Shown here: piece by piece, positions 57,138 through 58,533 of the stretch
Position numbering within the stretch: position 1 is the first letter of the stretch
Layout of the letters: each line of letters begins with the position of its first letter
DNA from: Oscillospiraceae bacterium
Lineage (GTDB): Bacteria; Bacillota; Clostridia; Oscillospirales; Oscillospiraceae
Assembly: GCA_022800215.1 (NCBI GenBank)
Contig: JAAWPV010000004.1
Location: 1 to 64,000, forward strand
Direction of reading: 5' to 3'
DNA: 64,000 nucleotides
Program-made: the position numbers and the translations under genes
The notes under the pieces: generated by a model
The model's input: the letters and a program-made list of their open reading frames with translations, nothing else
Told to the model about the DNA's origin: nothing
The model's database searches: none

Positions 57138-57202
57138 GACGAAAAAGATTGTAAGACTCTTTGATATTTGTAACCGGTTTTGTAACTGCCGTTTGCTATA
57201 AT
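57138..57202 (+). promoter_or_regulatory. Conserved repeat-type promoter module A
   Basis: ATTGTAAG (57148), TTTGTAAC (57167), TTTGTAAC (57179), -10 TATAAT (57197-57202). Confidence 0.85.
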
Positions 57203-57245
57203 AACATAAGTAGAAATATCTTACATTTCAACGGGGTGTCACTAT

Positions 57246-57794
57246 ATGCCAACCAAAAAAGAGATGAAAAAGCTGCGCCGGGATGAGCTGCTGGAGATGC
57301 TCATCGACCAGACCAAGCAGAAGGACGCACTGCAGCAGAAGCTGGACGAGGCGGAGGAGAAGCTCAAAAGCCGGGAGATCGCGCTTCAGGAGGCCGGTAC
57401 CCTTGCTGACGCGGCCCTCCGGCTCAGCGATATCTTTGAGGCCGCCGACAGCGCTGCCTCTCAATACCTGGAGAACGTCAGGACCCTCACCGAGCGGAAG
57501 AAGACCGCCATCCAGCAGATGGAGGAGGAGACCCGCCAGTCAGTGGAACGCCGGCTTGCCGAGGCGAAGCAGTCCGTGGAGCGTCAGCTCAGCGATACCG
57601 CCGAGAAATGCCGGGCCATGGAGGAGGAGACGGAGAAAAAATGCGCTGCCATGAAGCACCAGGCCCAGAAGGAGGCAGACGCCTATTGGGCGGAGGTCTC
57701 CCGGAAGCTGGAGCAGTATCTTGAGGACCATGAGGAGCTGGCCGAATGGCTGCTTCGCCGACAGCTTAATAAGGCTCGGGAGGAGAAAGCGTGA
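57246..57794 (+). CDS. Coiled-coil protein (DivIVA-like in character)
   Basis: Long charged coiled coil KQKDALQQKLDEAEEKLKSREIALQEAG...ETRQSVERRLAEAKQSVERQL. Confidence 0.7.
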   Translation: MPTKKEMKKLRRDELLEMLIDQTKQKDALQQKLDEAEEKLKSREIALQEAGTLADAALRLSDIFEAADSAASQYLENVRTLTERKKTAIQQMEEETRQSVERRLAEAKQSVERQLSDTAEKCRAMEEETEKKCAAMKHQAQKEADAYWAEVSRKLEQYLEDHEELAEWLLRRQLNKAREEKA

Positions 57795-58372
57795 AGAAGA
57801 ATATGCCGCGGGAGATCCCCGATGTAGATCTTCTGGAGGAGGAGCTCCACCGGGAGAAATACAAGAAGCGTTACCGCAAGGTCCTTCGGAGCACCATCTA
57901 TACCCTTATTACCGTGGCGGCCGCCGCGGTCCTCATTGCCACCCTGTTTCTCCCGGTGCTCCAGATCACCGGCACCTCCATGGCGCCTAACCTGGTGGAG
58001 GGGAACATCGTGGTTTCCGTCAACGGCTCACGGTACCAGCCCGGCGACGTCATCGCCTTCTACTTTGACAACAAGGTCCTGGTGAAGCGGGTCATCGCCA
58101 CGGCGGGCCAGTGGGTGGACATTGACGAGGAGGGCAACGTTTTTCTGGACGGCGAACCTCTGGACGAGCCCTACATCACCGAGAAGGCCTTTGGCCAGTG
58201 TAATATCGACCTGCCCTACCAGGTCCCCGAGTCCCATGTTTTCGTCATGGGCGACCACCGGAGCGTATCCCTGGACTCCCGCAACACGGCGGTGGGCTGC
58301 GTGGCCGGTGAGCAGATCGTGGGCCGGCTGGTTTTCCGGGTCTGGCCCTTTGAGTTCTTTGGGCCGATTTGA
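57791..58372 (+). CDS. lepB: Signal peptidase I
   Basis: N-terminal TM; GTSMAPNLVEGN (catalytic Ser), KVLVKRVIATAGQ (catalytic Lys), VFVMGDHRSVSLDSR. Confidence 0.93.
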   Translation: MKKNMPREIPDVDLLEEELHREKYKKRYRKVLRSTIYTLITVAAAAVLIATLFLPVLQITGTSMAPNLVEGNIVVSVNGSRYQPGDVIAFYFDNKVLVKRVIATAGQWVDIDEEGNVFLDGEPLDEPYITEKAFGQCNIDLPYQVPESHVFVMGDHRSVSLDSRNTAVGCVAGEQIVGRLVFRVWPFEFFGPI

Positions 58373-58469
58373 GCCTGCAGCATACTATATATAGTAGGGC
58401 CCACAAGGGGGACATTCGGAAAAGCTATACAAAATATACAAACTTTGACAAAAAAATTTATGAAAATTG

Positions 58470-58533
58470 ACGAAAATTTTTGTAAGTATTTTTGCGATTT
58501 GTAACCGGTTTTGTAACCACTGTGTGCTATAAT
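58470..58533 (+). promoter_or_regulatory. Conserved repeat-type promoter module B
   Basis: TTTGTAAG (58479), TTTGTAAC (58498), TTTGTAAC (58510), -10 TATAAT (58528-58533); spacing identical to module A. Confidence 0.85.

What the first reader, a model, noticed from the sequence alone, without database searches (positions are those of the whole stretch)
57138..58533. Same three-repeat promoter module in front of two adjacent operons
Seen directly: upstream of the coiled-coil/signal peptidase operon and of the adhesin/pilin operon there is a near-identical ~65-nt block, GACGAAAA..TTGTAAG..TTTG..ATTTGTAACCGGTTTTGTAAC..TGCTATAATA. Repeat starts are offset 19 and 12 nt in both copies. The last repeat ends 10 nt before TATAAT in both. 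Neither copy has a TTGACA-like -35 at 17 nt; the repeats sit there instead. That geometry suggests an activator-dependent regulon (response-regulator style) linking a dedicated signal peptidase to pilus production. The regulator is unknown and not obvious in the window.
Basis: partly seen in the sequence, partly recalled or inferred. Interest (0 to 1): 0.82.

Follow-up and report, generated by a model that had tools for sequence, protein, structure and literature searches.

The report
c-di-GMP-linked pilus promoter, SARP candidate regulator
Two neighbouring pilus-assembly operons of a gut bacterium share a rare promoter design that recurs, across related bacteria, almost only in front of adhesion and pilus genes and only in genomes that also carry one particular activator protein, which looks built to sense the second messenger c-di-GMP.

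Summary
Both promoters carry TTTGTAAC-N4-TTTGTAAC-N10-TATAAT plus TTGTAAG 19 nt upstream. A profile of the module finds 3 full sites (and one truncated) in the window's genome, and related sites in other genera, in front of pilus/signal-peptidase operons, secreted adhesins, SipW-TasA-like operons, a diguanylate cyclase and a small gene at the end of a type IV pilus operon. The best regulator candidate is on another contig: a SARP-type activator (winged helix + BTAD, AfsR-like fold) with a degenerate C-terminal GGDEF domain whose c-di-GMP-binding RxxD is invariant. All module-bearing genomes checked have it; 0 of 52 genomes lacking it have the module. The box sits where AfsR's sits (-42 to -19 against -40 to -19). 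In five module-bearing genomes 11 of 12 c-di-GMP-I riboswitches lie downstream of a module. I infer a c-di-GMP-responsive activator, in relatives backed by a riboswitch on the same mRNAs. Shown by computation: module, regulon, co-occurrence, fold. Not shown: DNA binding, c-di-GMP binding, direction of control.

The parts
57122..57166 (+). upstream A/T-rich part of the module of promoter 1, including TTTTGTG and GACGAAAA and the third repeat TTGTAAG at 57149-57155
   Evidence: module profile R1 matches 57122-57203, E 5.5e-17; the same spacing recurs in ungapped alignment of related sites
57167..57190 (+). promoter 1 direct-repeat box, two 12-nt units TTTGTAACCGGT / TTTGTAACTGCC, predicted -42 to -31 and -30 to -19
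57194..57202 (+). promoter 1 extended -10 element TGC-TATAAT
   Evidence: TGn conserved at nearly all related sites although it was not in the search pattern
57246..57794 (+). 182-aa coiled-coil protein, first gene of operon 1
   Evidence: ORF; orthologue followed by signal peptidase under a module in G003 and G015 and a similar pair in other genera
57791..58372 (+). type I signal peptidase
   Evidence: PF10502 3.6e-30; TIGR02227
58453..58497 (+). upstream A/T-rich part of the module of promoter 2, third repeat TTGTAAG at 58480-58486
   Evidence: R1 matches 58453-58534, E 3.3e-18
58498..58521 (+). promoter 2 direct-repeat box, TTTGTAACCGGT / TTTGTAACCACT
58525..58533 (+). promoter 2 extended -10 element TGC-TATAAT
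58555..58572 (+). leader hairpin 1: perfect palindrome CAAAGGCGTACGCCTTTG
   Evidence: (R2 E 3.4e-12)
58574..58596 (+). leader hairpin 2: GTTATGCCCC..GGGGCATAAC, 10-bp stem
58646..62200 (+). LPXTG-anchored adhesin with fibro-slime domain, first gene of operon 2
   Evidence: TIGR02148 3.5e-17, TIGR01167; DUF7601
62269..63789 (+). SpaH/EbpB-type major pilin
   Evidence: NF033902, TIGR04226; PF16569
63960..64000 (+). start of sortase gene; a Cna_B pilin and a second sortase follow beyond the window
   Evidence: L005:13961-14899, 14883-15977, 15937-16581

Best explanation
The block is a class of activator-dependent promoter. A SARP-type activator with a C-terminal degenerate GGDEF domain (L094:8154-9359:-, contig C39) is the most likely binder: two protomers sit side by side on the two 12-nt repeats, cover the place of the missing -35, and help sigma-A RNA polymerase start from the extended -10, as AfsR does on its box. 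The degenerate GGDEF domain keeps the RxxD c-di-GMP site, so c-di-GMP most likely sets the activity of the protein. The regulon makes surface structures: sortase pilus, its signal peptidase, large secreted adhesins and a small protein of a type IV pilus operon. In relatives a c-di-GMP-I riboswitch on the same mRNAs adds a second c-di-GMP checkpoint. Shown: module, targets, co-occurrence, fold, RxxD. Inferred: direct binding, activation rather than repression, c-di-GMP as ligand.
For: Small specific regulon. Targets. Regulator: conserved divergently beside the type IV pilus-like operon whose last gene carries the module. Co-occurrence: of 74 family genomes not chosen by motif, 22 have the SARP and 6 of those the module; 52 lack it and none has the module (Fisher p 4e-4). 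Loci chosen by the SARP alone carry the module in more than half of 46 cases at E < 0.01, where about 0.01 chance hits are expected in 743 kb. Fold: AF2 pLDDT 88, matches AfsR in its transcription complex, EmbR and c-di-GMP-bound GGDEF domains. R344 and D347 invariant in 40 homologues at exact I-site register, GGDEF replaced. Box position matches the AfsR box (PMC10936776). 11 of 12 c-di-GMP-I riboswitches in five module genomes lie downstream of a module. Divergent SARPs keep the box with the classical 11-bp spacing, mostly with the riboswitch. A GGDEF cyclase is itself a target.
Against: Repeat spacing is 12 in the window, not the 11 or 22 reported for SARPs. 16 of the 22 SARP-positive genomes gave no hit to the 12-bp model; some have the 11-bp form, others were not resolved. 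Other genes of the SARP cluster (REC-HD-GYP-GGDEF, HPt, hybrid kinase) co-occur too, and another unlisted DNA-binding protein could share the distribution. Genomes are related, so counts are not independent. The window's own genome has no intact c-di-GMP-I riboswitch. The SARP's own promoter in G000 has no box. RxxD alone does not prove c-di-GMP binding.
Confidence: 0.72

Rival explanations
1. An ordinary OmpR/PhoB/WalR-type response regulator binds the direct repeats as a class II activator.
For: Direct repeats just upstream of a -10 without a -35 are typical of that family too (own knowledge); TGTAAC-N6-TGTAAC resembles the WalR consensus TGTWAH-N5-TGTWAH (own knowledge).
Against: WalR-type regulators are close to universal in Firmicutes (own knowledge) while the module is patchy within genera and tracks the SARP. 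Spacing differs by one base from WalR. No receiver-winged-helix gene was seen beside module genes in the loci read.
Confidence: 0.13
2. The box is an operator: a repressor (the SARP or another protein) covers the -35 region of a strong extended -10 promoter.
For: Extended -10 with consensus TATAAT could start without help; position overlaps the -35 region.
Against: SARP homologues with this domain order act as activators at the same position (PMC10936776); the missing -35 argues for dependence on an activator.
Confidence: 0.1
3. The two blocks are a recent local duplication of one promoter with no wider regulatory meaning.
For: Adjacent operons, similar sequence over about 70 nt (54/69).
Against: The same module stands at unlinked loci in the same genome (contig C39) and in other genera in front of different genes.
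Confidence: 0.02
4. The SARP binds and activates, but its GGDEF domain is a structural or dimerisation relic and c-di-GMP acts only through the riboswitch or not at all.
For: Many degenerate GGDEF domains are not receptors (own knowledge); Pfam score for the domain in G000's protein is just under the cut-off (21.9 against 23.8).
Against: RxxD invariant in 40 homologues at 41-65% identity; riboswitch overlap and HD-GYP/GGDEF genes next door point to c-di-GMP; precedent YdaK (PMC5422440).
Confidence: 0.3

Closest known systems
SARP activators, AfsR of Streptomyces coelicolor acting on its afs box
   Same: Winged helix + BTAD fold; tandem direct repeats overlapping the -35 region, ending about 8 bp before the -10; no good -35
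   Different: Repeat spacing 12 instead of 11 in the window's clade; sequence TGTAACCGG; C-terminal degenerate GGDEF instead of NOD-TPR; controls adhesion in Clostridia, not antibiotics
Degenerate GGDEF c-di-GMP receptors such as B. subtilis YdaK (PMC5422440)
   Same: GGDEF motif lost, RxxD exactly five residues upstream kept
   Different: YdaK is a membrane protein acting on exopolysaccharide synthesis; here the domain is fused to a DNA-binding activator
c-di-GMP riboswitch regulons of C. difficile adhesins and type IV pili (PMC6200980)
   Same: Surface adhesins and pili under c-di-GMP, riboswitch in the leader in relatives of the window
   Different: Here riboswitches almost always sit behind one shared activator-type promoter; none in the window's own two leaders
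PhoB/WalR-type direct-repeat promoters
   Same: Tandem hexamer repeats about 10 bp upstream of -10
   Different: Spacing 12, patchy distribution, no receiver domain in the candidate

Membership tests
SARP activators (protein) | N-terminal OmpR-like winged helix followed by BTAD | tested here: met
   BTAD 3.4e-22, Trans_reg_C 0.0027 (PF00486 listed for several homologues); AfsR profile match 6e-14; Foldseek to 8k60_I TMt 0.68
SARP promoter box | tandem direct repeats overlapping the -35 region, 3' repeat about 8 bp from -10 | tested here: met
   units at -42..-31 and -30..-19 against -40..-19 for AfsR (PMC10936776)
SARP promoter box | repeats 11 or 22 bp apart | tested here: not met
   12 bp in the window and all sites of its clade; 11 bp in relatives with divergent SARPs. 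So: works like a SARP box, not filed as a canonical one
SARP promoter box | bound and activated by the SARP | not testable with these tools
   needs binding and transcription assays
degenerate GGDEF c-di-GMP receptor | GGDEF fold without catalytic motif | tested here: met
   SVSQF in place of GGDEF; fold match to 3ign, 4urq
degenerate GGDEF c-di-GMP receptor | RxxD five residues upstream of the motif | tested here: met
   R344 and D347 invariant in 40 sequences
degenerate GGDEF c-di-GMP receptor | binds c-di-GMP | not testable with these tools
   no ligand-binding computation was made
c-di-GMP-I riboswitch regulon | RF01051 aptamer in the leader | tested here: not met
   none in the window or intact in G000; met in relatives' leaders
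OmpR-type response regulator regulon | receiver plus winged-helix regulator tracking the module | not tested
   no genome-wide survey of response regulators was made

The most novel reading that the evidence does not exclude
A new class of c-di-GMP-responsive transcription factor, SARP fused to a receptor-type GGDEF domain, runs an adhesion/biofilm regulon in Oscillospiraceae and other Clostridia, with a second c-di-GMP reading by riboswitch on the same transcripts and, in one genome, a diguanylate cyclase among its own targets (feedback).
Probability: 0.55. Interest if true: 0.87.

Novelty: new variant of a known kind. Interest (0 to 1): 0.78.

Why it matters
How gut Oscillospiraceae (Oscillibacter, Flavonifractor, Pseudoflavonifractor) switch to an attached life is hardly known, and in Clostridia c-di-GMP is known mainly through riboswitches. 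This gives a named candidate regulator, its binding box, its targets and a testable ligand. If right, one messenger is read twice on the same gene, at initiation by a protein and afterwards by RNA, and SARP activators extend beyond Actinobacteria into c-di-GMP signalling. I found no paper joining SARP/BTAD and a GGDEF receptor in the open-access library; subscription papers are not held.

Tried and rejected
CcpA cre-like reading of TGTAACCGGTTTTG: the right half site is missing (by eye). LytTR: repeat spacing does not fit (own knowledge). WalR/PhoB: see rivals. Local duplication: contradicted by unlinked sites. Small target protein 'MQER' as the regulator: no Pfam or NCBIfam hit; its AF2 model has two bbb-a repeats with only insignificant PDB matches, Pur-alpha first at E 0.23, so it is a target of unknown function. 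Twin-hairpin model R2 captured only the first hairpin because MAFFT misaligned the second, so it tests the palindrome mainly; weaker R2 hits also occur in genomes without the module. Sites TGTAACCGCATTGTAACCG in SARP-less G001 and G011 have no -10 at the right place and look unrelated. Riboswitch ON/OFF direction could not be read from the leaders with confidence.

Full report
Observation. The two promoter blocks are exactly as described: repeats 19 and 12 nt apart, 10 nt from the last TTTGTAAC to TATAAT, no -35 at the usual place. Both also have an extended -10 (TGC-TATAAT). In the whole genome (1.96 Mb, 77.5% complete) the two-repeat pattern with up to two mismatches occurs three times, the third time on contig C39.

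The module is conserved. Searching 16 genomes of the genus gave 19 sites in 6 genomes; bases that were not in the search pattern are conserved too: TGTAACCGGTTTTGTAACCGG-N4-TGnTATAAT, and further upstream roughly TTTTGTGCAAAATGACGAAA..TTTTGAAAGAAAAAATGGAATT with nearly no insertions. Among 401 genomes of the family only 9 have the exact pattern, in 5 genera. A sequence-only profile (R1) finds three full sites in the window's genome at E 1e-16 to 1e-18, one truncated site, and no convincing site in six members of the genus that lack the candidate regulator or have only a distant one.

The targets are surface structures. They are the coiled-coil/signal peptidase operon (G000, G003, G015; similar operons in other genera), the adhesin/pilin/sortase operon, large secreted proteins, a SipW/TasA-like operon, a GGDEF diguanylate cyclase followed by a SipW-like peptidase and a camelysin-like protein, and a ~140-aa protein of unknown function ('MQER') at the end of a type IV pilus-like operon. 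Near the regulator in more distant genomes the module also precedes sortase-like, PilC and secreted-protein genes.

The regulator candidate. Beside the type IV pilus-like operon, transcribed the other way, lies a 402-aa protein: winged helix, BTAD, and a C-terminal GGDEF-like domain; behind it REC-HD-GYP-GGDEF, HPt and a dCache hybrid histidine kinase. It is present in every module-bearing genome tested (12 of 12, 6 of 6). In 74 family genomes not chosen by motif, none of the 52 without it has the module (Fisher p 4e-4). Presence and absence go together inside several genera, for example g39: G053, G351 and G249 have both, G142, G202, G286, G320, G378 and G403 have neither. Conversely, 46 loci fetched by the protein alone (named genomes include Oscillibacter, Flavonifractor, Pseudoflavonifractor) hold the module in more than half of the cases at E < 0.01, usually right in front of the MQER gene. 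Relatedness among genomes means that these numbers overstate independence.

Fold and ligand. AlphaFold2 gives pLDDT 88. The N-terminal part matches AfsR in its transcription complex and EmbR; the C-terminal part matches GGDEF domains, including one solved with c-di-GMP (sequence profile matches). The catalytic GGDEF is SVSQF, but R344 and D347, the RxxD site five residues upstream, are invariant in 40 homologues at 41-65% identity. The same arrangement in YdaK of B. subtilis binds c-di-GMP (PMC5422440). For AfsR, two 11-bp repeats lie at -40 to -19 (PMC10936776); here two 12-nt units lie at -42 to -19. In genomes with divergent SARPs (36-38% identity) the box has 11-bp spacing, TGTRACCGAAATGTAACCG, in front of secreted proteins, mostly with a riboswitch behind it.

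c-di-GMP riboswitches. RF01051 aptamers lie in the leaders of module genes. Whole-genome counts: in the module-bearing genomes G249, G015, G053, G351 and G258, 11 of 12 aptamers are on the same strand within about 700 nt downstream of a module (note that G015 contributes 1, G053 2, G351 1, G249 4 and G258 2 of its 3, which makes 10 of 11 in these five; the one further case is G008, whose aptamer follows a MQER paralogue with the 11-bp box). By chance less than 0.001 per aptamer is expected. The window's own genome has none intact, only a 3' remnant joined to the truncated module on contig C7. Riboswitches also exist without SARP or module (G286, G011), so the riboswitch is older or wider than this system.

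Leaders. The second window promoter is followed by a perfect 18-nt palindrome and an adjacent 10-bp hairpin (58555-58596). Fourteen such twin-hairpin leaders with different sequences keep the stems, and in some the arms overlap, so the two folds would compete; the window RNA folds better than shuffles (z -3.1). It is not in Rfam at gathering. Its role is unknown.

Verdict. The promoter class, its targets and the co-occurrence are computed facts. That the SARP binds the box, that it activates, and that c-di-GMP controls it are inferences, in falling order of strength.

Noticed in passing
58555-58596; also L006, L007, L013, L016, L017, L021, L022, L023, L042, L057, L084, L088, L090: Twin-hairpin leader: perfect palindrome with self-complementary centre (GTAC, ATAT, TATA) followed at once by a second hairpin with covarying stem; found in leaders of secreted-protein targets, not of the MQER gene. 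Alternative overlapping stems suggest a possible switch.
   Followed up: partly
L004:5832-6260 (G000 contig C39): Conserved ~140-aa protein (RGNEYRTT..FRQNASWQG..FRSVLEL) without Pfam or NCBIfam family, 1519 homologues, two bbb-a repeats in the AF2 model; last gene of a type IV pilus-like operon and the most constant target of the module.
   Followed up: partly
L078:5878-5935 (G000 contig C7): Module cut after the first repeat and joined to the 3' part of a c-di-GMP-I riboswitch, in front of a secreted 946-aa protein; real deletion or misassembly.
   Followed up: no
L079:4733-6220 (G053 contig C20): A GGDEF diguanylate cyclase directly under a module, followed by a MQER paralogue, a SipW-like peptidase and a camelysin-like protein: possible feedback on c-di-GMP.
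   Followed up: partly
L090 (G003:C15:29733-29813 and 29944-30024): Two modules in tandem in front of one coiled-coil/signal peptidase operon, each with its own twin hairpin.
   Followed up: no
L088:3318 and L089:4314 (G014): Genome without a detected SARP has only weak, degraded-looking modules and a MQER gene without one; may be decay after loss of the regulator, or an incomplete genome (77%).
   Followed up: no
L251 (G001) and L254 (G011): Identical TGTAACCGCATTGTAACCG in two genomes without SARP, no -10 in place; unexplained.
   Followed up: no
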